This document shows positions 7,160 through 20,624 of a DNA stretch of 23,042 nt, piece by piece. The stretch's first letter is position 1. Each line of letters opens with the position of its first letter. The position numbers and the translations under genes were made by a program. The stretch comes from a virus. The DNA lies in the IMG/VR virus record IMGVR_UViG_3300032050_000852, positions 1 to 23,042 of that record. One strand, 5' to 3'. The notes under the pieces were generated by a model, which did not search any database, had not been told where the DNA came from, and saw nothing but the letters and a program-made list of their open reading frames with translations.

Positions 7160-7329
7160 TGGCAAAATTAAAGCAAAATAAATTAAATGATATTAGTATA
7201 GATATTATTACAACTCAATCAACAAAAGTTCCAGAAACGTATATCACTATCCATCAAGACGGTAAAACGATATTCTTAGAACATAGCAAAATAGTAGATT
7301 TTTTAAAAACAGTTAATAATTTTAGGTAA
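7159..7329 (+). CDS. 56-aa protein of unknown function
   Basis: A frame from ATG 7159 to TAA 7329 encodes 56 residues beginning MAKLKQNKLNDISIDIITTQ. It overlaps both neighbours as TAATG, which strongly supports translation. The predicted fold is a mix of beta strands (the YITIHQDGKTIFLE region) with a C-terminal helix. No motif is recognised. Confidence 0.6.
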   Translation: MAKLKQNKLNDISIDIITTQSTKVPETYITIHQDGKTIFLEHSKIVDFLKTVNNFR

Positions 7330-7538
7330 TGAAAAACGGAAACCAATCAATCAATCCTATTAATACAAATACGCTTATTAGTCAGATGGGATTAACAAAA
7401 AGAGAATATTTTGCGGCTATGGCTATGCAAGGATTATTATCTAATACCGATGTGGACACTAGAAAAACAGACGGATTAACAAGATCTTGCGTAATATTAG
7501 CGGATGCATTACTAAGTCAATTAGAAAGTCTTAAATAA
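7329..7538 (+). CDS. 69-aa phage accessory protein, unknown function
   Basis: The protein contains GLTKREYFAAMAMQGLLSN followed later by ADALLSQLESL. This 'REYFAAxAMQGLL ... ADALL' pattern is familiar from small helical proteins found in many phage early regions, whose function is not established. The start overlaps the previous stop as TAATG. There are no cysteines or membrane segments. Confidence 0.65.
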   Translation: MKNGNQSINPINTNTLISQMGLTKREYFAAMAMQGLLSNTDVDTRKTDGLTRSCVILADALLSQLESLK

Positions 7539-8799: not shown

Positions 8800-8807
8800 T
8801 ATATTTG
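8800..8807 (+). promoter_or_regulatory. Promoter -7 element TATATTTG upstream of leader RNA A
   Basis: TATATTTG matches TAnnTTTG. The upstream region has only a weak -33 candidate (TCTG at 8775-8778). Transcription starting about 6 nt downstream would put the RNA 5' end at the first hairpin described in the next entry. Confidence 0.55.
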
Positions 8808-8810
8808 TCA

Positions 8811-8900
8811 TAGTTAAGTCGGTGGAGCGACATAAAAATTAACTAACTTATTAACCCTATTGCCCGATGAACTCCACTTCTGACGGCATAGGGTTTTTTT
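8811..8900 (+). ncRNA. Leader RNA A: 5' hairpin, terminator, and loop-loop pairing
   Basis: The segment folds as an outer helix TAGTTAA (8811-8817) with TTAACTA (8839-8845) around an inner hairpin GTCG/CGAC (8818-8831) whose loop is GTGGAG (8822-8827). Downstream is a terminator: AACCCTAT-T-GCC (8853-8864) pairs with GGCATAGGGTT (8885-8895), followed by seven T's. The terminator loop holds CTCCAC (8872-8877), the exact complement of the first loop. The ERF gene starts 10 nt after the T run. It may be an attenuator or a free small RNA of about 87 nt. The pairings are seen in the sequence; the function is inference. Confidence 0.65.
8853..8900 (+). terminator. Intrinsic terminator of leader RNA A, upstream of erf
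   Basis: An 11-bp stem with a single bulged T encloses a 20-nt loop and is followed by TTTTTTT. It lies directly before the ERF gene, so read-through would be required for expression from upstream promoters. Confidence 0.75.
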
Positions 8901-8910
8901 ATTAAACAAT

Positions 8911-9534
8911 ATGGAAACAAAAGCAAATTTAGCAAAGGCTATTATAGCTGTTATGCAAGAAGTAAAAGGAATTGAAAAGTCTATGACTATTGGAACTGGT
9001 AGCAATGCCTACAAAGGTGTTCCTGATCAAGAAGTAAAAAAGATTATAGGCGAAGCAATGGCTAAGAATGGTTTATGTATTTTACCAATTTCTGTTAAAC
9101 CTAATGTGAGAATTGATAGATGGGATGCTTTAGATTATAACGGTAAACCCACTCAAAAACAGTCAGTATTTACAGATGTTACAACCGAATACTTACTATT
9201 GCATACAAGCGGAGAAAGTCAAGTGTTAAGTGGTTACGGTCATGGAATTGATAGCCAAGACAAGGGAGCTGGCAAAGCAACTACATACTCTTTAAAATAC
9301 GTTTTACTTTATACTTTCTTAGTTCCTACTGGCAAAATTGATGACGCTGATAATACTCATTCTGATAGCATTGAAACGCCTGTTAAGAAACAACCCACAG
9401 TAGACGAGGTAAACGCTAAGATAATTAACGCTAAAACATTAGCAGAGTTAAAAACAATGTTTGAAGCATTACCACCGAATGAACAAAAGATAGCCGTTCC
9501 AATGAAAGAAAAACTAAAAGCAACTTTGAAATGA
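8911..9534 (+). CDS. erf: ERF-family single-strand annealing recombinase
   Basis: This 207-residue protein matches the ERF superfamily. The signature core lies at residues 108-137 (GYGHGIDSQDKGAGKATTYS, then LKYVLLYTF), preceded by a helical N-terminus with AIIAVMQEVKGIEKS and the DxTTEY strand region. ERF proteins form rings that anneal complementary single strands during phage recombination and genome circularisation. The C-terminal quarter (TVDEVNAKIINAKTLAELKT) is a separate helical tail. It is first in a block with three small genes and a RusA-like resolvase, a coherent recombination module. The gene follows leader RNA A. Confidence 0.88.
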   Translation: METKANLAKAIIAVMQEVKGIEKSMTIGTGSNAYKGVPDQEVKKIIGEAMAKNGLCILPISVKPNVRIDRWDALDYNGKPTQKQSVFTDVTTEYLLLHTSGESQVLSGYGHGIDSQDKGAGKATTYSLKYVLLYTFLVPTGKIDDADNTHSDSIETPVKKQPTVDEVNAKIINAKTLAELKTMFEALPPNEQKIAVPMKEKLKATLK

Positions 9535-9743
9535 ATTTAGCAAATATAACATTAAGTGAAAGAGACTACCAATCTCTTTTACTTAACGGTGCTTTTGACG
9601 GCATTAAATTAATTTCTGTTAAAATACTGCCAGACGACACCGAAATCAAAGAGGAACAAATGTATAAGGATTTACAAAAAAAGTATGTAAAGGCTCGTAA
9701 TGAGTTTGAAGATTATAAATTTAAAATGACTACTAATAAATAA
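9531..9743 (+). CDS. 70-aa protein with C-terminal coiled coil, unknown function
   Basis: The N-terminal half (LANITLSERDYQSLLLNGAF) looks globular and the C-terminal half (EEQMYKDLQKKYVKARNEFE) is a charged coiled coil. It overlaps the end of erf by 4 nt (ATGA), so it is likely co-translated with the recombinase and may be a partner. No known domain is recognised. Confidence 0.6.
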   Translation: MNLANITLSERDYQSLLLNGAFDGIKLISVKILPDDTEIKEEQMYKDLQKKYVKARNEFEDYKFKMTTNK

Positions 9744-9747
9744 TATA

Positions 9748-10104
9748 ATGGGGATAATAATAAACGGTATAATAGAAAATGTTAGCACTCGCAAAGATAG
9801 AAGCCTAAAATTAACAATAGGCACTCAAGAACTAGGAAGTAAATCTACTTCCGAACTCTTTGAGCTATCAAATAACATAGCTAATATTTATATTTCAGCT
9901 AATCAAATTAGCAATGATATTAAAACAGAAATTGATAAACATAGTAAAGACGAAATTGATAAAATTAAAAGTCCTAGTCAAAGATTAAGAGCTGTTTTGT
10001 TTTTAAATTACAAAGAAAATAACTCGGGATTTAATACCTTTGATAATTACTATGCTAGTAAAATGGAGCAAATTATTGAACATTATAAAAGTAAATTGGA
10101 ATGA
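9748..10104 (+). CDS. 118-aa protein following erf, conserved-looking, unknown function
   Basis: The N-terminus (MGIIINGIIENVSTRKDRSL, then KLTIGTQELGS) suggests a beta-rich domain, and the C-terminus (SPSQRLRAVLF ... YYASKMEQIIEHYKSKLE) is helical. I recall this general layout ('IIExVxTxKDxSxKLTIGTQEL ... SQRLR ... EQIIEHYKSKL') from genes beside phage annealing proteins in Bacteroidetes, but its function is not established to my knowledge. It may bind DNA or the recombinase. Its stop overlaps the next gene's start. Confidence 0.65.
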   Translation: MGIIINGIIENVSTRKDRSLKLTIGTQELGSKSTSELFELSNNIANIYISANQISNDIKTEIDKHSKDEIDKIKSPSQRLRAVLFLNYKENNSGFNTFDNYYASKMEQIIEHYKSKLE

Positions 10105-10313
10105 TAACAGATAATCAAATAAAAGAAATTTTATCACAAAGAGAACCCGATGCGCATGATATGATAAAAGTTATAATAAGATATATTTTTGATTTAAAAA
10201 AAGAAGAAATAGATTTTAATATGGTTAATATACCTAACGATTTTTTTCAAATTAAAATTTGCTATCACATGTTTAATTTTGCTAAAAACTATTATGGTAA
10301 AATTATTAATTAA
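10101..10313 (+). CDS. 70-aa protein of unknown function
   Basis: A small protein starting MITDNQIKEILSQREPDAHD, mostly helical with an aromatic C-terminus (CYHMFNFAKNYYGKIIN). It overlaps the previous gene by 4 nt and the RusA-like gene by 20 nt, so it is part of the recombination block. No motif is recognised. Confidence 0.55.
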   Translation: MITDNQIKEILSQREPDAHDMIKVIIRYIFDLKKEEIDFNMVNIPNDFFQIKICYHMFNFAKNYYGKIIN

Positions 10314-10626
10314 GCCGTTAAGTGTCAATAGTGCATATAAAGGCAGACGCTTTGTTACAGATGCTCATAGGTGGTTTAAAATGAATATGCGACAATTACT
10401 ACCTGATAACTATAAACTACCAGCACCGCCTTATGTTATTCATTTTGAGTTTGGTTTAAGTAGTGGTAATAGTGATGGAGATAATTGTGTTAAATTAGCT
10501 CAGGATTCAATAGCTGACAAATATGGTTTTAATGATAGGTATATTAAAAGATGGATTATTGACGTTGAACAAGTTAAAAAAGGTCATGAATATATTTCTT
10601 TTAAAATAGAAACTTTATTAAAATAA
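10294..10626 (+). CDS. rusA: RusA-like Holliday junction resolvase
   Basis: Starting at ATG 10294 gives 110 residues, close to the RusA family's usual length; an in-frame ATG at 10279 would add five residues. The N-terminus has the SVNSAYKGRRF strand motif. The core shows NSDGDNCVKLAQDSI (residues 59-73) with catalytic-type Asp61, Asp63 and Asp71 and Lys67, then GFNDRYIKRW, all typical of RusA. It would cleave four-way junctions created by ERF-mediated recombination and replication. It closes the recombination block immediately before the second leader-RNA unit. Confidence 0.85.
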   Translation: MVKLLIKPLSVNSAYKGRRFVTDAHRWFKMNMRQLLPDNYKLPAPPYVIHFEFGLSSGNSDGDNCVKLAQDSIADKYGFNDRYIKRWIIDVEQVKKGHEYISFKIETLLK

Positions 10627-10627
10627 A

Positions 10628-10658
10628 TTTGGTAGTTTAAATATAATAACTACTTTTG
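10628..10658 (+). promoter_or_regulatory. Full Bacteroidetes-type promoter upstream of leader RNA B
   Basis: TTTG at 10628-10631 and TACTTTTG at 10651-10658 are separated by 19 nt, the canonical -33/-7 arrangement. A start about 6 nt after the final G falls exactly on the first hairpin of leader RNA B. Confidence 0.75.
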
Positions 10659-10663
10659 TGAAA

Positions 10664-10756
10664 GTTACGGTCTCAATTATACGGTAACAAACGAACTTAA
10701 ACAGCTCGGATAATGAAGCAAACGTGAGACCTTTGTGGATTTATTCGGGCTTTTTT
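10664..10756 (+). ncRNA. Leader RNA B: 5' hairpin, terminator, and loop-loop pairing
   Basis: The 5' hairpin GTTAC (10664-10668) with GTAAC (10684-10688) exposes a loop containing GGTCTCA (10669-10675). The terminator stem (10703-10713 with 10741-10751, 11 bp with two G-T wobbles) is followed by six T's. Its loop holds TGAGACC (10725-10731), a perfect 7-nt complement of the first loop. The layout matches leader RNA A although the sequences differ, so the pairing is likely real. The downstream gene starts at 10761. An attenuation switch controlling the IbrA/IbrB block or a stable small RNA are the two main readings. Confidence 0.7.
10703..10756 (+). terminator. Intrinsic terminator of leader RNA B
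   Basis: AGCTCGGATAA pairs with TTATTCGGGCT (two wobbles) and is followed by TTTTTT. It lies 5 nt before the ATG at 10761. Confidence 0.75.
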
Positions 10757-10760
10757 AATT

Positions 10761-11204
10761 ATGTCTATTAAAAGAATTTACCACCACTACAAAAAATGGG
10801 AAGATCATAAAGCTGGATTTTACGATAATATTACTGGAAATAATAAAGAAGAACTTATTTTAAAAGTAATAGAATTATTTAATAATCCATCATTAACAGA
10901 AAATTATATGCGTAAAGTTATTAATGAGTGGACTTTTTCGTGTGAACATAATTTAAGTAATATTAGTTTAAATAGAATTGCATATATAGGACAAGCAGCT
11001 TGTTGTTTATACGCTTCCGTTCCTTGTACTATTACTATGAATGCTTGGAATAAAATAGATATTTCTTATAGAAATGTGGCTGATAGTATAGCAATTAAAA
11101 TTATAAAAGAATGGGAACAAAATCAAAAATTAAAAAATACATTAACCAATGGGAACAAAAAGGATATCCAAATGGAATACCAGACGAAGTGCCTATTCAA
11201 TTAG
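10761..11204 (+). CDS. 147-aa protein associated with the IbrA/IbrB pair, unknown function
   Basis: The protein begins MSIKRIYHHYKKWEDHKAGF and contains MRKVINEWTFSCEHNLSN, then AYIGQAACCLYASVPCT. This 'YHHYxKWED ... VINEW ... IGQAAC' pattern is one I associate with small phage genes beside DUF3440/IbrA proteins; function is unknown. The last 31 codons overlap the next gene in another frame (11111-11204). Either the tail is a real extension or the true end was moved by a frame change; the N-terminal 115 residues are the convincing part. Confidence 0.6.
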   Translation: MSIKRIYHHYKKWEDHKAGFYDNITGNNKEELILKVIELFNNPSLTENYMRKVINEWTFSCEHNLSNISLNRIAYIGQAACCLYASVPCTITMNAWNKIDISYRNVADSIAIKIIKEWEQNQKLKNTLTNGNKKDIQMEYQTKCLFN

Positions 11205-11380
11205 AAAAATTAGATTCCGTTCCTTCATATAGAAAAATATGTATAGCATTAATGAAAAACGAAAATAATTTAGAAATATTAGGATATTCAAGAAAAAAAA
11301 CTTTAGTGTATAGTGAATTAAAACGAATAGAAATAGAACAAAGATTTACAAAAAATAAACAATTAAAATTAAATTTATGA
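11111..11380 (+). CDS. 89-aa protein related to the C-terminal part of the IbrA-like protein
   Basis: The protein contains KKYINQWEQKGYPNGIPDEV and a following SVPSYRKICIALMKNENNLE. The second stretch resembles the C-terminus of the adjacent 442-aa protein (FRHCPNWKAVCITIMKNDF), sharing the W/Y-K-x-(I/V)CI-x-(I/L)MKN core. It therefore looks like a stand-alone copy of the DUF3440-associated C-terminal domain. It overlaps the upstream gene by 94 nt and the downstream gene by 4 nt. It may be a partner subunit that contacts the IbrA-like enzyme. Confidence 0.65.
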   Translation: MGTKSKIKKYINQWEQKGYPNGIPDEVPIQLEKLDSVPSYRKICIALMKNENNLEILGYSRKKTLVYSELKRIEIEQRFTKNKQLKLNL

Positions 11381-12705
11381 ATGTATTAGAAGCAACAAAT
11401 AAAAGATTAGAAATAATTTTTAGAGATTTTGAAAATGTATTAGTAGCGTTTTCTTGTGGTAAAGATAGTGGTGTAATGCTATCACTTACTTATAAATATG
11501 CTAAAGAAAATAATCTATTACATAAACTTTCATTTTACTATGAAGATTATGAAGCTGGATATAGACATACAGACGAATATGCTGATAGAATTTTTTCTGA
11601 ATTAAATGATGTAAAGGCTAGGTATTGGTTATGTTTACCAATTTCGGCTGCTTGTTCTGTATCAATGTATGAGCCTAGATGGATTCCGTGGGATAAAGAT
11701 AAAAAAGATATTTGGGTTAGAGATATGCCAAAATACGATTATGTAATAAATGAAGATAATTGTCCTTATGAATTTACTAAAGGCACTAAGGGATTTGATG
11801 CACGTATTCAATTTAGTACATGGTATGGAGATACGTTTGGTAAAACAGCTGTATTGATTGGCATTAGAGCAGAAGAAAGTTTAACACGTAGAGGTATATT
11901 TACTTCTCAACATAGAAAGTATATGCACAAAGGATTAAACTATTCTAAGATAGTAGATAAAAATACTATAAACTTTTATCCTATTTATGACTGGCAAACA
12001 GAAGATATTTGGATATGCAACAATAAGTTTGAATTTGATTATAATAAGATTTATGATTTATATTATCAAGCTGGTTTAACTATTGACCAAATGAGGGTTG
12101 CTAGTCCGTTCCATTTATCGGGACAAGAAAACTTAAAACTATATAAAGTTATTGATCCTAATAACTGGGGGAAAATGGTAGGTAGAGTTAATGGATGTAA
12201 TTTTGGTGGTATTTACGGTGGAACTTCTGCAATGGGATGGAAAAAAATAAGTAAACCTAATCACTTTACATGGAAACAATATGCTGAATTTTTACTAGAT
12301 ACTTTACCAGAAGAAACAAAAAAAAAATTTAATTATCATTTAAAAAGATTTACAGACGTTTGGAAAAATAAAGGATATGGTAGAAATCCAAGAGTAATAA
12401 AACAGATTGAAGATGCTGGTATTGAAATAGAAAGGACTGGAAATATAAGTAAACTTTGTAAGAAAAAAGATATTTATGAGATAATAAAAATAAAAGGTGA
12501 ATGGGTTGATGAAATAAATATAGAAAATTCTACTCCATTTAGACATTGCCCAAACTGGAAAGCTGTTTGTATTACAATAATGAAAAATGATTTTGGATTA
12601 ACATATATGAGTTGCGGCAGAACTCAGGATAAAAATATATTAAAACAAAAAAGCATGAATAAATTTAAAAAATTACAAGATTTAAAAAAAATAACTAAAA
12701 AATAA
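11377..12705 (+). CDS. ibrA: IbrA-like PAPS-reductase-family protein (DUF3440)
   Basis: This 442-residue protein belongs to the phosphoadenosine-phosphosulfate reductase / ATP-pyrophosphatase fold. Residues 24-35 (AFSCGKDSGVML) hold the PP-loop SxGKDS that binds ATP or PAPS. Further family features are GIRAEESLTRRG (about 168-179) and PIYDWQTEDIW (about 203-213). The C-terminal third is the DUF3440-type extension. IbrA and IbrB occur together in prophage-like loci; biochemical function is unsettled. The fold is shared with DndC, which activates sulfur for DNA phosphorothioation, so a nucleic-acid modification or anti-defence role is possible but unproven. No key residue of the PP-loop is missing. 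Confidence 0.85.
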   Translation: MNVLEATNKRLEIIFRDFENVLVAFSCGKDSGVMLSLTYKYAKENNLLHKLSFYYEDYEAGYRHTDEYADRIFSELNDVKARYWLCLPISAACSVSMYEPRWIPWDKDKKDIWVRDMPKYDYVINEDNCPYEFTKGTKGFDARIQFSTWYGDTFGKTAVLIGIRAEESLTRRGIFTSQHRKYMHKGLNYSKIVDKNTINFYPIYDWQTEDIWICNNKFEFDYNKIYDLYYQAGLTIDQMRVASPFHLSGQENLKLYKVIDPNNWGKMVGRVNGCNFGGIYGGTSAMGWKKISKPNHFTWKQYAEFLLDTLPEETKKKFNYHLKRFTDVWKNKGYGRNPRVIKQIEDAGIEIERTGNISKLCKKKDIYEIIKIKGEWVDEINIENSTPFRHCPNWKAVCITIMKNDFGLTYMSCGRTQDKNILKQKSMNKFKKLQDLKKITKK

Positions 12706-12710
12706 ATAAT

Positions 12711-13247
12711 ATGGAAACAACAACAACACAATTTAAAAGTCCAGTTTACAATGTACTAAGAGTACACATGGATAAAATTAGAGCTAATGCCTATAATCCA
12801 AACGCAGTAGCTCCACCAGAAATGAAATTACTTGAAATGTCTATTTGGGAAGATGGTTATACTATGCCAGTAGTAGCTTATTATATTCCAGAAGATGATA
12901 TTTATGAGATTGTCGATGGTTACCATAGATATACAACATTAAAGACAAGTAAAAGAATATTTGAAAGGGAGCAAGGTTATTTACCATTAGTAGTTATTGA
13001 AAAGGATTTAAGTAATCGTATGGCTTCTACTATTCGACATAATAGAGCAAGGGGGTCGCATTCAATAGATTTAATGAGTCATATAGTAGCTGAATTAGTT
13101 GATAGTGGAATGTCAGATGGATGGATTTTAAGACATATAGGTATGGATAAAGATGAGTTGTTAAGACTTAAACAAGTAACTGGATTAGCTGCTTTATTTA
13201 AAGACCATGAATTTTCTAAAGCCTGGGAGGATAAGGGCAATGATTAA
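12711..13247 (+). CDS. ibrB: IbrB-like ParB/sulfiredoxin-fold protein
   Basis: The 178-residue protein has a ParB/Srx-type core: DKIRANAYNPN, an acidic strand YEIVDGYHRY (residues 65-74) and the basic motif IRHNRARGSH (108-117). These are the phosphate and nucleotide-binding motifs of the ParB N-terminal superfamily, which can act as CTPase or nuclease. A short helical C-terminal part (WILRHIGMDKDELLRLKQVT) looks like an HTH. It follows the IbrA-like gene by 5 nt, the standard pairing. Its end overlaps the nuclease gene by 8 nt. Probable joint action with IbrA is inferred from this neighbourhood. Confidence 0.85.
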   Translation: METTTTQFKSPVYNVLRVHMDKIRANAYNPNAVAPPEMKLLEMSIWEDGYTMPVVAYYIPEDDIYEIVDGYHRYTTLKTSKRIFEREQGYLPLVVIEKDLSNRMASTIRHNRARGSHSIDLMSHIVAELVDSGMSDGWILRHIGMDKDELLRLKQVTGLAALFKDHEFSKAWEDKGND

Positions 13248-13849: not shown

Positions 13850-13881
13850 TTTGTTTTTTACGTTCTTTATTATTATATTTG
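13850..13881 (+). promoter_or_regulatory. Promoter upstream of leader RNA C
   Basis: TTTG at 13850-13853 and TATATTTG at 13874-13881 are 20 nt apart, close to the canonical arrangement. The predicted RNA start falls at the first hairpin of the next element. Confidence 0.7.
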
Positions 13882-13884
13882 CGT

Positions 13885-14012
13885 ATCTGAACTCGGCACT
13901 CAGATTTAAAACATATCTTAACATTTAAAACATTAGAGCCTTTATAGGTGTGTTGCTAGAGTTAAGACTAGCTAGGTTGCCAAACCAAACACATCTGTAA
14001 AGGTTTTTTTTT
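13885..14012 (+). ncRNA. Leader RNA C: 5' hairpin and long terminator
   Basis: The 5' hairpin ATCTGA (13885-13890) with TCAGAT (13900-13905) leaves a 9-nt loop. Downstream, 13937-13952 pairs with 13990-14005 and leads into a run of T's. The large terminator loop contains an inner hairpin GCTAG/CTAGC (13955-13972). The layout equals leader RNAs A and B, but loop complementarity is weaker (AACTC near the 5' loop with GAGTT at 13959-13963). It lies directly before the 14021 gene and the replication block. Confidence 0.5.
13937..14012 (+). terminator. Intrinsic terminator of leader RNA C
   Basis: GCCTTTATAGGTGTG pairs with CACATCTGTAAAGGT, including several G-T wobbles, and is followed by a run of T's. 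It ends 8 nt before ATG 14021. Confidence 0.7.
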
Positions 14013-17431: not shown

Positions 17432-17540
17432 GTTATAAGTCTGGTGGTGGCATAGGTGAATTTGGTTGAAAGCAGAAATGCTGGATTTACTTCTGACACC
17501 GAAGAAGTTGAATTGCTTCGAGCCACCACTTACTTATAAC
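17432..17540 (+). ncRNA. Gene-less cassette holding a structured, cloverleaf-like element
   Basis: The segment is bounded by GTTATAAGT (17432-17440) and its complement ACTTATAAC (17532-17540). Inside, GTGGTGGC (17444-17451) pairs with GCCACCAC (17522-17529). Further stems are GGTG/CACC (17455-17458 with 17497-17500), CAGAA/TTCTG (17473-17495) and CGAAG/CTTCG (17500-17520). Together they make a branched fold. No open frame of useful length lies within. It is not a standard tRNA because no T-arm with TTCRANY fits. The cargo of this first cassette is therefore probably an RNA. Confidence 0.5.
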
Positions 17541-17598
17541 ATTTTGCGGCTAAACGCTGCGTAGCGTAACAAAGTTGCGATTTAGGTGCTGTTATAAG
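17532..17598 (+). repeat. attC-like site 1
   Basis: Outer boxes ACTTATAAC and GTTATAAG. Inner arms GCGGCTAAA and TTTAGGTGC with an unpaired G-G position, plus a short CGC/GCG apex stem. The spacing from GTGC to GTTA is a single T, as at other sites of the array. Confidence 0.7.
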
Positions 17599-17629
17599 TA
17601 GTTGCGGATTATTAAAACAAAAATATAAA

Positions 17630-17938
17630 ATGGAAAGAAGAATAAAATCGGAATGGTTTAGATTGGATAGACCGATTGGAGAACCTTATGAAAAATGGTA
17701 TAACGAGGCTTACGACATTGAAAGAGTAGTAACATCAGATGGAACAACGATTTGGTTTGGATGCTCAACAAATTGGAAAAAAGAAAAGGATGGCGAGTGG
17801 ACAAAACTCACTACCAATGAAGATGCTAAACCATTGGATAAGTATTTACCTGAAATAGTTTATGGTGAGGATAGGAATATATTTGTAAAATGTGACATTC
17901 CTATTTACGAGAAACTCTATTTGGAACTCGGAACGTAG
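17630..17938 (+). CDS. Cassette 2 protein, 102 aa, unknown function
   Basis: The cassette runs from GTTATAAGTAGTTGC (17591-17605) to its near-complement GCAATTACTTATAAC (17938-17952). The protein starts MERRIKSEWFRLDRPIGEPY and is rich in Trp, Tyr and charged residues (EKWYNEAYDIE, TTIWFGCSTNWKKE), suggesting a small beta-rich globular protein. I recognise no domain, signal peptide or membrane segment. The start is 33 nt inside the cassette, and the stop lies just at the R'' arm of the next site, a usual tight fit for cassette genes. Confidence 0.65.
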   Translation: MERRIKSEWFRLDRPIGEPYEKWYNEAYDIERVVTSDGTTIWFGCSTNWKKEKDGEWTKLTTNEDAKPLDKYLPEIVYGEDRNIFVKCDIPIYEKLYLELGT

Positions 17939-17945
17939 CAATTAC

Positions 17946-18079
17946 TTATAACGGTTGAGTATAAGAGAAGTAAACGTGAACCAAGAAGCCTATAGAAGTT
18001 GAGCCATTAATCAACCATGTGGAGGTGTAAAAAACCACAGAAAAAACACCACGTTTATTTCTTTTATACTTTGTTATAA
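17946..18079 (+). repeat. attC-like site 2, long (134 bp)
   Basis: TTATAAC (17946) and GTTATAA (18073) bound a 21-bp stem (17958-17978 with 18050-18070), with only two G-T wobbles. The large apex contains GTTGA/TCAAC and a GTGG/CCAC hairpin. Its arms differ from the GCAGCT/AGGTGC class, so it represents a second site type. Confidence 0.7.
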
Positions 18080-18192
18080 AATCGTTTTAATGTTTTATAA
18101 CGTTTTGCAGCTTTAAGAAGTGGCTGCCTAAAAATTACTTCATTTGTAAAACAAAGGCTATTAGCAGCCATTTATTAAAGGTGCTGTTAGTG
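18073..18192 (+). repeat. Empty cassette 3 with attC-like site 3
   Basis: GTTATAAAA (18073-18081) and TTTTATAAC (18093-18101) are only 11 nt apart, so this cassette has no gene. Site 3 follows: 18107-18127 pairs with 18164-18184 through GCAGCTTTAA/TTAAAGGTGC and TGGCTGC/GCAGCCA. It ends at GTTAGTGG (18186-18193), where cassette 4 begins. The 276-base stretch 17939-18214 thus contains two sites and no gene. Confidence 0.65.
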
Positions 18193-18214
18193 GTCTGTTA
18201 AAACTAAAATTAGC

Positions 18215-18538
18215 GTGGGATTATTAGACAAAAAATTTAAAGTACGAGTAAGCCATTTTGCTGAATGTAAATATACGGTTGATTATGCTTATTACAGATT
18301 TATACCTGTGTGGCATTCGTTATGTTTTTGGTTTGAGCAAGGGCATCCAGGAGGAACAGAATGTTGGAGTACTGATATGTGGGATGTTAAAACGGCTGAA
18401 CGAATTGCAAGTGAAATAAAAACAATAAATGATGTTAGAGAATATTACAAGCCACTTGAAGAGAAAGAAGCAAAATGGGAACAAATCGAAAAAGAATATT
18501 GGCAAAATAACGCTCCTTATGTGCATAAGGAATTTTAG
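18215..18538 (+). CDS. Cassette 4 protein, 107 aa, unknown function
   Basis: The cassette lies between GTTAGTGG (18186) and its exact complement CCACTAAC (18550-18557). The gene starts with GTG at 18215, about 29 nt inside. The protein is aromatic-rich (YAYYRFIPVWHSLCFWFEQG, then HPGGTECWSTDMWD), followed by a charged helix ending in VHKEF. No signal peptide or membrane segment fits well despite the aromatics. I do not recognise the family. Being alone in an excisable unit suggests a self-contained function. Confidence 0.6.
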   Translation: MGLLDKKFKVRVSHFAECKYTVDYAYYRFIPVWHSLCFWFEQGHPGGTECWSTDMWDVKTAERIASEIKTINDVREYYKPLEEKEAKWEQIEKEYWQNNAPYVHKEF

Positions 18539-18549
18539 TTTTAATTGCC

Positions 18550-18604
18550 ACTAACGTTTTGCGGCTAATAAATCGGTTTGCTGTTTATTAGGTGCGTTTA
18601 TAGG
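18550..18604 (+). repeat. attC-like site 4
   Basis: Arms GCGGCTAATAAA (18563-18574) and TTTATTAGGTGC (18586-18597). The right end reads GTTTATAG rather than GTTATAAG and lacks the usual single T spacer, so this junction has diverged. Confidence 0.65.
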
Positions 18605-18656
18605 TAGGTTGTAACGAATGTTTAATTAATACAAAATATAAAAAATAACAATAGAT

Positions 18657-18812
18657 ATGGAAAACGAAGACTTGAATAAAAAAATAAAATCTGAAATTGA
18701 ATCACAAATTAGAATAGCTAGGGATGTTAAATTGAGTGATTATAATTTAGCGACAATGATATTTGTTGCGCTTGAAATGAAAGGATTTTTAACCGAAAAA
18801 CTAAAACAATGA
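18657..18812 (+). CDS. Cassette 5 first protein, 51 aa
   Basis: ATG 18657 opens a 51-codon frame, MENEDLNKKIKSEIESQIRI and then ARDVKLSDYNLATMIFVALE. It overlaps the next gene by 4 nt as ATGA, so the two form a coupled pair. The protein is helical and charged with a hydrophobic C-terminal half. Two small coupled genes in one cassette is the layout of toxin-antitoxin modules, but neither product matches a family I know. Confidence 0.55.
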   Translation: MENEDLNKKIKSEIESQIRIARDVKLSDYNLATMIFVALEMKGFLTEKLKQ

Positions 18813-19039
18813 GCCAACTTAATTTAGATTTTAACGAAAAACTAAAACAAGACGAAAGTAAAATAGACGTTAATCAATTATTTAAAGATTATGCTAACGC
18901 CTTAAGTAAATTACCAAAATCGTATTATTTACCAAAAAACGGATATACGGTTATACCTAGTGAGGTGAGCAAGTTACTACAGAATATAAATAACAATGAA
19001 CCAATGTGCTGTTATAAGCTGACGGTTACGAATGGATAA
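18809..19039 (+). CDS. Cassette 5 second protein, 76 aa, C-terminus encoded by a site remnant
   Basis: This frame starts in the ATGA overlap and encodes MSQLNLDFNEKLKQDESKID and on. The last codons, giving CCYKLTVTNG, are read from a truncated attC-like site and run 29 nt into the next cassette, past GTTATAAGC at 19011. The true original stop was probably lost together with the missing part of the site. The N-terminal acidic region and central SKLPKSYYLPKNGYTVIP stretch look like a small globular protein. Function is unknown. Confidence 0.5.
   Translation: MSQLNLDFNEKLKQDESKIDVNQLFKDYANALSKLPKSYYLPKNGYTVIPSEVSKLLQNINNNEPMCCYKLTVTNG
18988..19019 (+). repeat. attC-like site 5, truncated remnant
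   Basis: Only AAATAAC (18988-18994) and TGTGCTGTTATAAGC (to 19019) remain; the paired arms are missing. The right half still matches the other sites, so it may be read as a junction that can no longer fold. Confidence 0.5.
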
Positions 19040-19064
19040 TTAATACACAATATAAAAAAACACT

Positions 19065-19172
19065 ATGAAAAAATACACATACAGAGATTTAAAGATTGCG
19101 TTTTTGCTAGGCTCAATATCAACAACATTATTAAACTTATTAATAATAGAATTTTTTTTTTTAAATAAATAA
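19065..19172 (+). CDS. Cassette 6 first protein, 35-aa membrane peptide
   Basis: ATG 19065 opens 35 codons starting MKKYTYRDLKIAFLLGSIST. Residues about 11-33 form one hydrophobic segment ending in FFFLNK. A single-pass membrane peptide with a basic N-terminus is predicted. It ends one base before the 98-aa gene, suggesting a two-gene cassette. A run of T's at 19152-19162 inside the coding end could also be slippage-prone. Confidence 0.45.
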   Translation: MKKYTYRDLKIAFLLGSISTTLLNLLIIEFFFLNK

Positions 19173-19173
19173 A

Positions 19174-19470
19174 ATGGATAATAGAACTATAAAAATAAAA
19201 GAATTAATAAAAGGACAGGTTGATATGGTAACATTTGGGCTTGTAGAACTTGAATTATTAAATTTTGAAAAAGAAATTGAAAAACTTAAAATACAAATAA
19301 GTGGAAAAACATTCTTTGATAAAGAAGAAGTTTTAATACTTCAAATTAAGGATTTAGAATTGCATAATAATGATTTAAGAAATGATTATATCGTAGCAAT
19401 TAAAATGCTTAGAACAAAATTTACAGATGATGAGATTAGTGAATTTTACAACAAACCCGTTACAAAGTAG
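19174..19470 (+). CDS. Cassette 6 second protein, 98-aa coiled coil
   Basis: The protein is almost entirely helical: VELELLNFEKEIEKLKIQIS, then EVLILQIKDLELHNNDLRND, which reads as a coiled coil with Leu/Ile in heptad positions. It ends FYNKPVTK just before the R'' arm at 19480. It could dimerise with itself or pair with the membrane peptide upstream. No known family is recognised. Confidence 0.6.
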   Translation: MDNRTIKIKELIKGQVDMVTFGLVELELLNFEKEIEKLKIQISGKTFFDKEEVLILQIKDLELHNNDLRNDYIVAIKMLRTKFTDDEISEFYNKPVTK

Positions 19471-19479
19471 CTACCGTTT

Positions 19480-19538
19480 GCTTATAACGGATTGCAGCTA
19501 ATAAATCGGCTTGCTGTTTATTAGGTGCTGTTATAAGC
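19480..19538 (+). repeat. attC-like site 6
   Basis: GCTTATAAC (19480-19488), arms GCAGCTAATAAA (19494-19505) and TTTATTAGGTGC (19517-19528), and GTTATAAGC (19530-19538). This is the most regular site. The 29 bases at 19525-19553 are identical to 19006-19034. Confidence 0.75.
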
Positions 19539-19615
19539 TGACGGTTACGAATGTTACTATGAAAAATTAATTTAAAAAAATAACGATATTAAAATAGAAA
19601 AAATAAAACAAAACA

Positions 19616-19819
19616 ATGAAACTACCGAGACACATATACGAGAAAAAAGAACACGGAGACGGTATAGCTATATCAAGAATGTACGGAGTGCCTAAATCAT
19701 CTGTTAGCGATGTTTTTCAGGTTGGAGAGGGAAAAACAAATACAGTAAGAGCTATCATTGATTTTTACAACGTGAAATATGGTAGACCTGAAATATATAA
19801 TTTAAAAAAACTTATATAA
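19616..19819 (+). CDS. Cassette 7 Cro-like DNA-binding protein, 67 aa
   Basis: The protein starts MKLPRHIYEKKEHGDGIAIS and contains MYGVPKSSVSDVFQVGEG, a helix-turn-helix. It resembles the phage's own 58-aa protein at 6983: both have MK(I/L)P, KKE-x-GD, AI, a Val in the recognition-helix region, G-x-G and TV-x-AI. The cassette copy has a longer C-terminus (KYGRPEIYNLKKLI). A cassette gene homologous to a resident phage regulator suggests regulator exchange or competition for operators. The gene starts about 85 nt inside the cassette. Confidence 0.65.
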   Translation: MKLPRHIYEKKEHGDGIAISRMYGVPKSSVSDVFQVGEGKTNTVRAIIDFYNVKYGRPEIYNLKKLI

Positions 19820-19849
19820 TCAAAAATATAAATAACGCCACCACCTTTT

Positions 19850-19986
19850 GCTTATAACGTTAAAACGCTTGGCGAAGAAGCGGACTTGAAAGCACAGACT
19901 TTCAGTTTATCACAAAAGCCAATAGGAAGCACGAATATTCAATTTATCACTAAACCCGCTTTTTTGCCAAACGTGTGTTATGTGCC
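19850..19986 (+). repeat. attC-like site 7, long (about 137 bp)
   Basis: GCTTATAAC (19850) and GTTATGTGCC (19977-19986) bound arms ACGCTTGGCGAAGAAGCGG (19865-19883) and CCGCTTTTTTGCCAAACGT (19956-19974), pairing with two G-T wobbles and one C-A mismatch. It belongs to neither the GCAGCT class nor the site 2 class. I have a general memory of similar repeats in Bacteroidetes genomes but cannot verify it here. Confidence 0.7.
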
Positions 19987-20035
19987 GTTTTTTTTAGAGT
20001 AGAATTTTAATTTAACAATATAAACAAATAACAAA

Positions 20036-20494
20036 ATGGGAATAGATACCAAAGCAATCCTTAGAAAAGGAACAACGATTGAACAAATCGAAAAAGCAAT
20101 TTCTGACAAATATACAGAAGTTGAAGTTAGAGCAACAATGCCTGATTTTATGTATGTAACATTCAAAGATGCTGCTGACCAAAGACAACTTGCAGTTTCA
20201 TTTACAAACTCTTGTGAACGAGATGATAATATTTCGGGTGTTTGGACATCTCTTGGCAAATGGGGTAATTCAGTTGAAATAGCAAGATACCTATGTGAAA
20301 CATTTGGTGGGTATCTTGACGAAAATGATTGTGATGATGAAGGTTATTATCCAATAAATTTTCACCTTTATTCACAAGGAAACGAATTTACTAAACTTGA
20401 TGAATTTCGTCATAAGGTCATAAAAGAAGTTGGATATGACAAGCTAAAATCAGTTATGAAATTGCTTGATGAATATTCGGAGGTAGTGTCTTAA
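20036..20494 (+). CDS. Cassette 8 protein, 152 aa, unknown function
   Basis: The cassette is bounded by GTTATGTGCC (19977) and its complement GGCACATAAC (20498-20507). The protein begins MGIDTKAILRKGTTIEQIEK and alternates strands and helices (VTFKDAADQRQLAVSF, SVEIARYLCETFGGYL, later VIKEVGYDKLKSVMKLLDEY). It is an acidic cytosolic protein with no signal peptide. The overall shape resembles small immunity-like or DUF proteins, but I recognise no family. It is the largest hypothetical cargo gene in the array. Confidence 0.7.
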   Translation: MGIDTKAILRKGTTIEQIEKAISDKYTEVEVRATMPDFMYVTFKDAADQRQLAVSFTNSCERDDNISGVWTSLGKWGNSVEIARYLCETFGGYLDENDCDDEGYYPINFHLYSQGNEFTKLDEFRHKVIKEVGYDKLKSVMKLLDEYSEVVS

Positions 20495-20497
20495 AAT

Positions 20498-20569
20498 GGC
20501 ACATAACGGTTTGCAGCTAACCGATAGTTTTTGCTTTTCGCAAAAATTTTGGTTAGGTGCTGTTATATT
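20498..20569 (+). repeat. attC-like site 8
   Basis: Arms GCAGCTAACC (20513-20522) and GGTTAGGTGC (20551-20560), apex stem TTTTTGC/GCAAAAA (20528-20546), then T and GTTATATT (20562-20569). It carries the same unpaired G-G position as sites 1, 3, 4 and 6. Confidence 0.75.
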
Positions 20570-20624
20570 TAGTTGCCTAGAATAGCAATGCGTAGTGTAA
20601 AACATAAATTTTAAAATAAAACAA

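What the first reader, a model, noticed from the sequence alone, without database searches (positions are those of the whole stretch)
8811..10756. Two leader RNAs whose 5' hairpin loop pairs with their terminator loop
Seen in sequence: leader A has loop GTGGAG and terminator loop CTCCAC; leader B has loop GGTCTCA and terminator loop TGAGACC. Both have a TAnnTTTG promoter ending 3-6 nt before the first helix, a short linker, a terminator with a 20-27 nt loop, a T run, and an ATG 5-11 nt later. Different sequences with preserved complementarity argue for a real tertiary contact. Inference: a new class of phage attenuator or stable small RNA in which loop-loop pairing controls termination and thus expression of the recombination and IbrA/IbrB blocks.
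Basis: partly seen in the sequence, partly recalled or inferred. Interest (0 to 1): 0.8.

Follow-up and report, generated by a model that had tools for sequence, protein, structure and literature searches.

The report
Phage leader RNAs with kissing terminators
Several phage genes, mostly for copying or repairing DNA, are preceded by a short RNA whose first hairpin loop base-pairs with the loop of the stop signal just before the gene; the contact is kept in many relatives although the paired letters change, so it is real, and it looks like a previously undescribed type of gene switch.

Summary
Leaders A (8800-8900) and B (10651-10756) each run promoter, 5' hairpin, linker, intrinsic terminator, start codon, with complementary loops. 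The window holds a third such leader (C, 13874-14012), whose contact is weaker. Loop-blind searches of viral contigs found relatives of A: 21 of 21 elements, located by hairpin stems alone, keep 6/6 Watson-Crick pairing over six loop sequences; L220, found later, has a seventh, also 6/6. The same architecture recurs, sequence-unrelated, behind sigma70-type promoters. In the largest such family, P-II, 41 of 41 distinct elements keep 7/7 pairing over ten loop sequences; covariation is 0.377 against 0.126 in shuffles. GU outnumbers AC in stems 67 to 6, so the folding is in RNA. No Rfam match was found. Best reading: a promoter-proximal attenuator in which an intramolecular kissing complex completes the terminator; downstream genes are mainly replication and recombination genes. 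The structure is shown by covariation; its effect on termination, and whatever releases it, are inferred. All relatives are uncultured contigs; no transcript data exist here.

The parts
8800..8807 (+). Leader A promoter -7 box TATATTTG (Bacteroidetes type)
   Evidence: 14 of 14 distinct promoter-blind pattern hits carry TAnnTTTG
8812..8844 (+). Leader A 5' hairpin H1: outer stem AGTTAA/TTAACT, inner stem GTCG/CGAC, loop GTGGAG at 8822-8827
   Evidence: RNAfold; covariation of inner stem and loop
8855..8900 (+). Leader A intrinsic terminator: arms 8855-8864 / 8885-8893, bulged U, inner hairpin with kissing loop CTCCAC 8872-8877, T7 8894-8900
   Evidence: kissing loop pairs with 8822-8827
8911..9534 (+). 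ERF-type single-strand annealing protein, first gene behind leader A
   Evidence: PF04404 and phrog_155
10651..10658 (+). Leader B promoter -7 box TACTTTTG, with TTTG 19 nt upstream
10664..10688 (+). Leader B 5' hairpin H1: GTTAC/GTAAC, kissing segment GGTCTCA 10669-10675
   Evidence: relatives L043 and L067 before homologues of the same gene carry different complementary loops
10703..10756 (+). Leader B intrinsic terminator: arms 10703-10713 / 10741-10751, inner hairpin with TGAGACC 10725-10731, T run 10751-10756
10761..11204 (+). 147-aa protein with WED motif, first gene behind leader B; no Pfam, PHROGs or NCBIfam match
11377..12705 (+). IbrA-like PAPS-reductase/DUF3440 protein of the block behind leader B
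   Evidence: PF11922, PF01507, phrog_2302
12711..13247 (+). IbrB/ParB-like protein of the block behind leader B
   Evidence: phrog_2159
13874..13881 (+). Leader C promoter -7 box TATATTTG
13885..13905 (+). Leader C 5' hairpin H1 ATCTGA/TCAGAT; candidate kissing segment AACTC 13890-13894
   Evidence: RNAfold; contact only 4-5 bp and not supported by relatives
13937..14012 (+). Leader C strong terminator: arms 13937-13954 / 13987-14003, inner hairpin 13955-13972 with GAGTT 13959-13963, T9 14004-14012, ATG 14021
   Evidence: RNAfold z -5.2

Best explanation
Each leader is a compact promoter-attenuator cassette of about 110 bp placed directly before the first gene of a phage DNA-metabolism operon. 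Transcription starts at, or a few nucleotides before, a 5' hairpin (H1). About 50 nt later the RNA makes an intrinsic terminator whose top is a small hairpin. Its 6-7 nt loop pairs fully with the H1 loop, so the two hairpins kiss and both ends of the RNA are capped. Shown by sequence and covariation: the promoter, both hairpins, the loop-loop helix, the T run, the start codon close behind, and that pairing matters at RNA level while loop identity largely does not. Inferred: by the time the terminator's 3' arm leaves RNA polymerase the apical loop is already out and can be caught by H1; the contact thus pre-organises a terminator that would otherwise close a large loop, and most transcripts end as a ~90-nt capped RNA. 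The operon is expressed by leakage, or when a phage or host factor prevents H1 or the kiss from forming. The release signal is unknown. The same arrangement in sequence-unrelated families suggests that phages of different hosts reached it independently, or that it is very old.
For: Loop-blind covariation in the A family: 21 of 21 elements 6/6; 15 distinct cores, kissing helix 90 of 90 cells paired, 5 of 6 pairs changed on both sides, structure covariation 0.819 against 0.212 shuffled and at most 0.176 when slid. A new member found by a promoter-blind and loop-blind pattern has a new code, 6/6. P-II: 41 of 41 distinct elements 7/7; 36 aligned, kissing helix 252 of 252 cells paired, 4 of 7 pairs changed on both sides. 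Two further P-II members found by covariance model, L281 and L087, read by eye as 7/7. RNA level: 67 GU against 6 AC in 1080 stem cells. Cis position: T-run end to ATG 17 nt or less in 30 of 36 rows, 9-14 nt in 33 of 36 P-II. Promoter abuts H1. Downstream proteins: ERF, ParB-like, helicase/methylase, BT4734-like primase, HNH, replication initiators. Of 22 relatives of one replication gene examined out of 41 loci, the 10 with a leader have it between promoter and ATG; the other 12 are preceded by coding sequence.
Against: No transcript ends, termination efficiency or read-through were measured. The terminator stems look strong enough to work without the kiss, so its effect could be small, or it could serve RNA stability. 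No antiterminator or ligand was identified. Only 6 of 25 homologues of the gene behind leader B carry such a leader, so the element is dispensable. Leader C has only a 4-5 bp contact.
Confidence: 0.6

Rival explanations
1. The terminated ~90-nt RNA is itself the product: a stable small RNA or decoy, made rigid by the kiss and capped by hairpins at both ends, acting in trans.
For: Both ends lie in hairpins and the promoter starts at H1; the kiss would protect the RNA.
Against: Elements sit almost always a few nt before a start codon on the same strand (30 of 36 rows within 17 nt; 33 of 36 P-II at 9-14 nt), which a free-standing RNA gene would not need. Both loops are occupied in cis, and unpaired parts differ between families.
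Confidence: 0.15
2. A loading platform for processive antitermination, like HK022 put or lambda Q: the folded RNA captures RNA polymerase or a phage protein that then reads through this and later terminators.
For: Position at the 5' end of phage operons; invariant linker GGCTGACC and parts of H1 in P-II (the linker was part of the search pattern) and conserved TTAACTA in the A family could bind a factor.
Against: The kissing loop lies inside the terminator itself; no antiterminator gene was recognised among the window proteins scanned; families share no sequence.
Confidence: 0.15
3. Specificity code: loops diversify so that leaders of one phage, or of competing phages, do not cross-pair in trans, as in plasmid incompatibility or P1/P7 c4 heteroimmunity.
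For: No two leaders of one record share a code (0 of 13 pairs; L281 adds another pair with different codes). L114 and L130 have the same gene at 94% nt identity but 3 of 6 loop letters changed with matching changes in the partner.
Against: Between-record sharing is only 7.6%, so 0 of 13 has P = 0.36. The inner stem of H1 varies as much as the loops, so neutral compensatory drift is enough.
Confidence: 0.08
4. DNA-level inverted repeats, such as operators or recombination sites, with no RNA function.
For: Complementary segments are inverted repeats in DNA.
Against: GU 67 against AC 6 in stems; the paired loop letters are among the variable ones while pairing is kept; fixed order promoter, H1, terminator, ATG.
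Confidence: 0.02

Closest known systems
pT181-type plasmid attenuators (repC leader; passages of PMC4878617 read)
   Same: Promoter-proximal leader with an intrinsic terminator and loop-loop kissing.
   Different: There the kiss is with a separate antisense RNA and an antiterminator pairing is the alternative fold. Here both loops are in one RNA and no conserved antisense promoter was found (7 of 21 with a TAnnTTTG box on the other strand, background 0.37 boxes per 290 nt).
Phage c4 antisense RNA of P1/P7 and the P4 CI RNA (c4: passage of PMC12197685; P4 CI recalled)
   Same: Phage RNA with complementary sequences likely in loops; operon or immunity control.
   Different: c4 acts as an antisense RNA on the ant message. 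No Rfam match to RF01695 in the leaders scanned.
HK022 put and lambda Q/N antitermination sites (recalled, no call)
   Same: Structured RNA or site at the start of phage operons that governs terminator read-through.
   Different: put has no built-in terminator and, as far as recalled, no kiss with one.
Riboswitches with kissing loops such as purine and guanidine-II (recalled)
   Same: Leader RNA, loop-loop contact, terminator.
   Different: No conserved ligand-pocket core was recognised; the kissing loop sits on the terminator itself.
Candidate phage RNAs of comparative genomics, e.g. STAXI and wcaG (passages of PMC2864571)
   Same: Structured RNAs in phages or near DNA-processing genes.
   Different: STAXI is a pseudoknot repeated in tandem; none is described in those passages as a terminator kissing a 5' hairpin.

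Membership tests
Transcription attenuator leader (general kind) | Own promoter, structured leader, intrinsic terminator (G+C stem and T run) before the first codon | tested here: met
Transcription attenuator leader (general kind) | Termination is conditional and changes expression of the downstream gene | not testable with these tools
   no RNA data; inference only
pT181/antisense attenuator | Antisense RNA transcribed from the opposite strand of the leader | tested here: not met
   No conserved antisense promoter: 7 of 21 elements with TAnnTTTG on the other strand, 0 of 21 with a -33 element; tested for the A family only
C4 antisense RNA (RF01695) | Match to the family covariance model | tested here: not met
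   No match in the window at E<=1, in 10 loci at gathering score, in 10 loci at E<=0.5
Any of 4227 Rfam 15 families | Score above the family threshold | tested here: not met
   covariance models carry no pseudoknots, so a remote family could be missed
HK022 put / lambda Q antitermination | RNA or site makes polymerase resistant to distant terminators | not testable with these tools
   needs transcription assays
Leader A family (subfamily 1, defined here) | Match to model R1 | tested here: met
   window 8808-8898, 74.5 bits, E 3.8e-14; 21 matches at E<=0.01 in 19 sources. The window was not in the model's seed
Leader A family (subfamily 1, defined here) | 6-nt loops fully complementary, located without using the loops | tested here: met
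   21 of 21
Leader B with L043 and L067 | Homologous gene downstream, same hairpin plan, different complementary loops | tested here: met
   three cases only

The most novel reading that the evidence does not exclude
A categorically new, cross-phylum class of phage gene switch: intrinsic terminators completed by an intramolecular kissing complex with the transcript's own 5' hairpin, evolved at least three times (Bacteroidetes type; P-II; P-I with a second, linker-to-hairpin contact) and placed before the replication and recombination operons, so that expression is set by whether one kiss forms during a short co-transcriptional time.
Probability: 0.45. Interest if true: 0.88.

Novelty: new variant of a known kind. 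Interest (0 to 1): 0.75.

Why it matters
Textbook attenuators switch between alternative helices or await a separate RNA, a ribosome or a ligand. Here a tertiary contact inside the terminator itself is what selection keeps, in phages with unrelated leader sequences and promoter types. If it sets termination, it gives a simple, portable on/off element for the timing of phage replication genes, a natural set of loop pairs for synthetic attenuators, and a clean system for testing how co-transcriptional tertiary folding affects intrinsic termination. It also suggests that covariance-model searches without pseudoknots can overlook such families.

Tried and rejected
Promoter-free scan for kissing terminators: not discriminating alone, so only elements with promoter, terminator and start codon were used further. 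Conserved loop sequence as a protein or ligand site: disfavoured, most loop positions vary (one of six and three of seven kissing pairs do not vary). Loop code as an orthogonality device: not supported statistically. Antisense control: no conserved antisense promoter. DNA operator or cruciform: disfavoured by the GU excess. Isolated phages: blastn with leader A found nothing credible; P-II and P-I leaders matched only metagenome-assembled records MW202710 and MW202462/MW202544; P-II gave no match among plasmids. Eight replication-gene regions of phage records were fetched; only MW202710 has a gap before the gene with a leader; in the other seven the preceding annotated gene adjoins or overlaps. 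Literature: searches showed no description of such an element in their listings; papers read only as passages: PMC2864571, PMC4878617, PMC12197685.

Rows dropped: chance pattern matches without a terminator (17 rows; L280 and L317), two stretches at contig ends (L270, L303), L001 and L152 as duplicate or non-element in scans. In one search, 22 of 41 loci were examined (start of the gene present with upstream sequence). In that call the script's best pick for L235 was wrong and the contact was read by eye. L008 was missed by the scanner (T run of four) and read by eye. The element list used for one search was curated by hand from earlier calls. The 28-mers are the 15 distinct ones of the 21 elements.
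Full report
What was checked. The window is a 23,042-base virus record. RNAfold, which cannot see the kiss, already folds both into a 5' hairpin and a terminator, with an inner hairpin around the second loop. Two points go beyond the report. First, the terminator loop is organised: in A the two kissing loops are 6 nt each and pair completely; in B seven letters of each loop pair. Second, there is a third leader C before ORF 14021, with a very strong terminator (z -5.2) but only a 4-5 bp contact, which relatives neither support nor contradict.

Is it more than chance? A scanner for the full anatomy, run on 943 distinct windows behind TAnnTTTG boxes in 104 viral loci and the window, gave 14 elements at score 28 or more; 30 rounds of dinucleotide shuffling gave a mean of 0.07 and never more than 1. 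The hits had quite different loop pairs. The same scan without the promoter was not discriminating, so I did not rely on it.

Covariation in the family of leader A. A pattern that uses only the promoter and outer H1 stem, not the loops, was scanned through viral contigs: 41 stretches. Sorting by presence of a terminator left 21 distinct elements from all loci then held; the 17 rows without one look like chance matches. A covariance model, R1, built from seven sequences that do not include the window, finds 21 matches at E<=0.01 in 19 sources, the window's at E 3.8e-14. When both loops are located by their stems alone, with loop length fixed at six, 21 of 21 elements have 6/6 Watson-Crick complementarity, with six different codes: GTGGAG, TGTGCG, TGTGGG, TGCGGG, TTCGGG, TGGTGG. 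On the 15 distinct cores the kissing helix is paired in 90 of 90 cells with changes on both sides at 5 of 6 pairs; the structure's covariation score is 0.819 against 0.212 in shuffles and at most 0.176 in slid versions. A further scan, blind to promoter and loops, returned 20 loci, 19 of them known; the new one, L220, has a seventh code, GTAGAG/CTCTAC, again 6/6, and all 14 distinct hits have a TAnnTTTG box. This was a forward test and it passed.

Leader B. Its closest relatives stand before homologues of the same WED-motif gene: L043 (GGTTCGAC/GTCGAACC) and L067 (CATCCTAC/GTAGGATG) share the plan but not the loops. In L008, L032 and L037 the homologous gene has other kissing leaders. Of 25 homologue rows printed, 6 carry a leader; L038 and L047 have, by eye, a promoter box about 20-30 nt before the ATG and no leader there. 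The cassette is therefore an optional insert between promoter and gene.

The same architecture elsewhere. Loci with sigma70-like promoters gave three strong look-alikes, L080, L084 and L103. Starting from the replication gene behind the one in L103, I found 41 viral loci encoding relatives and examined 22: 10 have a kissing leader, the other 12 have coding sequence directly upstream. They form two families. P-II has a long H1 with a 7-nt loop and a 7-nt apical terminator loop. A loop-blind pattern from its H1 3' arm and linker returned 64 stretches. Of 43 distinct cores (including some loci held before), two are chance matches without a T run; the remaining 41 of 41 have 7/7 complementarity, with ten codes. 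In these calls the loop length was fixed at seven after seeing the first cases. On 36 aligned elements the kissing helix is paired in 252 of 252 cells, 4 of 7 pairs vary on both sides, and the whole-structure covariation is 0.377 against 0.126. A model from them, R2, adds two members, L281 (a second element in that record, with a different code) and L087, both 7/7 by eye. P-I has a 6-nt H1 loop (TTGGTC or TTGGCG by eye) pairing with a strand between two small hairpins at the top of the terminator, and a second contact between the linker and the loop of the first small hairpin: own pairs 5-7 bp in 8 of 8, mismatched pairs 3.9 on average, permutation P = 5e-5. P-I and P-II share no recognisable sequence with the window's leaders: R2 gave no match at E<=0.05 in the window or in the seven Bacteroidetes-type loci included. 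I therefore claim the same architecture, not common descent.

RNA, not DNA. In P-II stems GU pairs number 67 and AC 6 of 1080 cells, as expected if this strand is folded as RNA. In the kissing helix GU is 0 of 252, so the contact is strict.

Position. In 36 rows of the promoter scan the T run ends 17 nt or less before an ATG in 30 (one or two of these rows, such as L073, are probably chance). In P-II the distance is 9-14 nt in 33 of 36, and a -10 hexamer with at most one mismatch to TATAAT occurs in 33 of 36; its end lies about 7-9 nt before H1 in 35. So the RNA starts near H1 and the start codon follows the terminator directly. Downstream genes, where named, are DNA-metabolism genes: ERF, IbrA/IbrB-like, helicase-methylase, BT4734-like primase, DUF6291, HNH, ParB-like, replication initiators; several have no named family.

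How it works. Shown: promoter, two hairpins, loop-loop helix, terminator, adjacent start codon. Inferred: in A 16 nt separate the second loop from the T run, so with about 14 nt of RNA inside polymerase (recalled figure) it emerges as the U tract is approached; H1 can catch it at the moment of the termination decision. The kissing duplexes are -6 to -11 kcal/mol as simple duplexes. I think the contact strengthens or speeds terminator closure (confidence 0.6). I cannot exclude that it mainly stabilises the terminated RNA, or that it is a platform for an antiterminator.

Loop diversity. Leaders of one record never share a code (0 of 13 pairs), but sharing between records is only 7.6%, so this is not evidence (P = 0.36). 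In L114 and L130 the same gene is 94% identical, fourfold sites differ at 9 of 56, and the loops differ at 3 of 6 with matching changes. But the H1 inner stem varies as much as the loops in P-II. Neutral compensatory change under a purely structural constraint is enough.

Known or new. No Rfam family matches and eight literature searches listed nothing of the kind; non-open papers and preprints were not searchable. By kind it is a leader attenuator; by architecture I know of no described equal. All relatives are uncultured or metagenome-assembled records, so hosts are unknown and no expression data exist.

Noticed in passing
window 17525-20580: Repeated imperfect palindromes (TTATAACG...TTGCAGCTAA...TTAGGTGCTGTTATAA, several copies) separate small orphan ORFs; this resembles integron attC sites and a gene-cassette array inside a phage genome (resemblance recalled; repeats; NCBIfam finds no family for the five ORFs of this stretch tested).
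   Followed up: partly
window 11111-11380 and 11377-12705: A short ORF that matches the C-terminal end of DUF3440 lies immediately before the full IbrA-like gene, suggesting a duplicated or split tail domain.
   Followed up: no
L205, L221, L222, L235, L236, L245, L320, L326: P-I leaders have a second covarying contact (linker with the loop of hairpin a) and usually a GNRA-type second hairpin by eye.
   Followed up: partly
L326 4-222 (MW202462.1): The record with a P-I leader carries a gene annotated as transcription elongation factor spT4 nearby, a possible lead for a regulator.
   Followed up: no
L326 817-1059: The annotated hypothetical CDS UOF77143.1 lies on the opposite strand over the P-I leader and is probably a spurious gene.
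   Followed up: no
L080 about 7306-7435: A kissing leader GTCGCAA/TTGCGAC behind a sigma70-like promoter is not followed closely by a clear gene.
   Followed up: no
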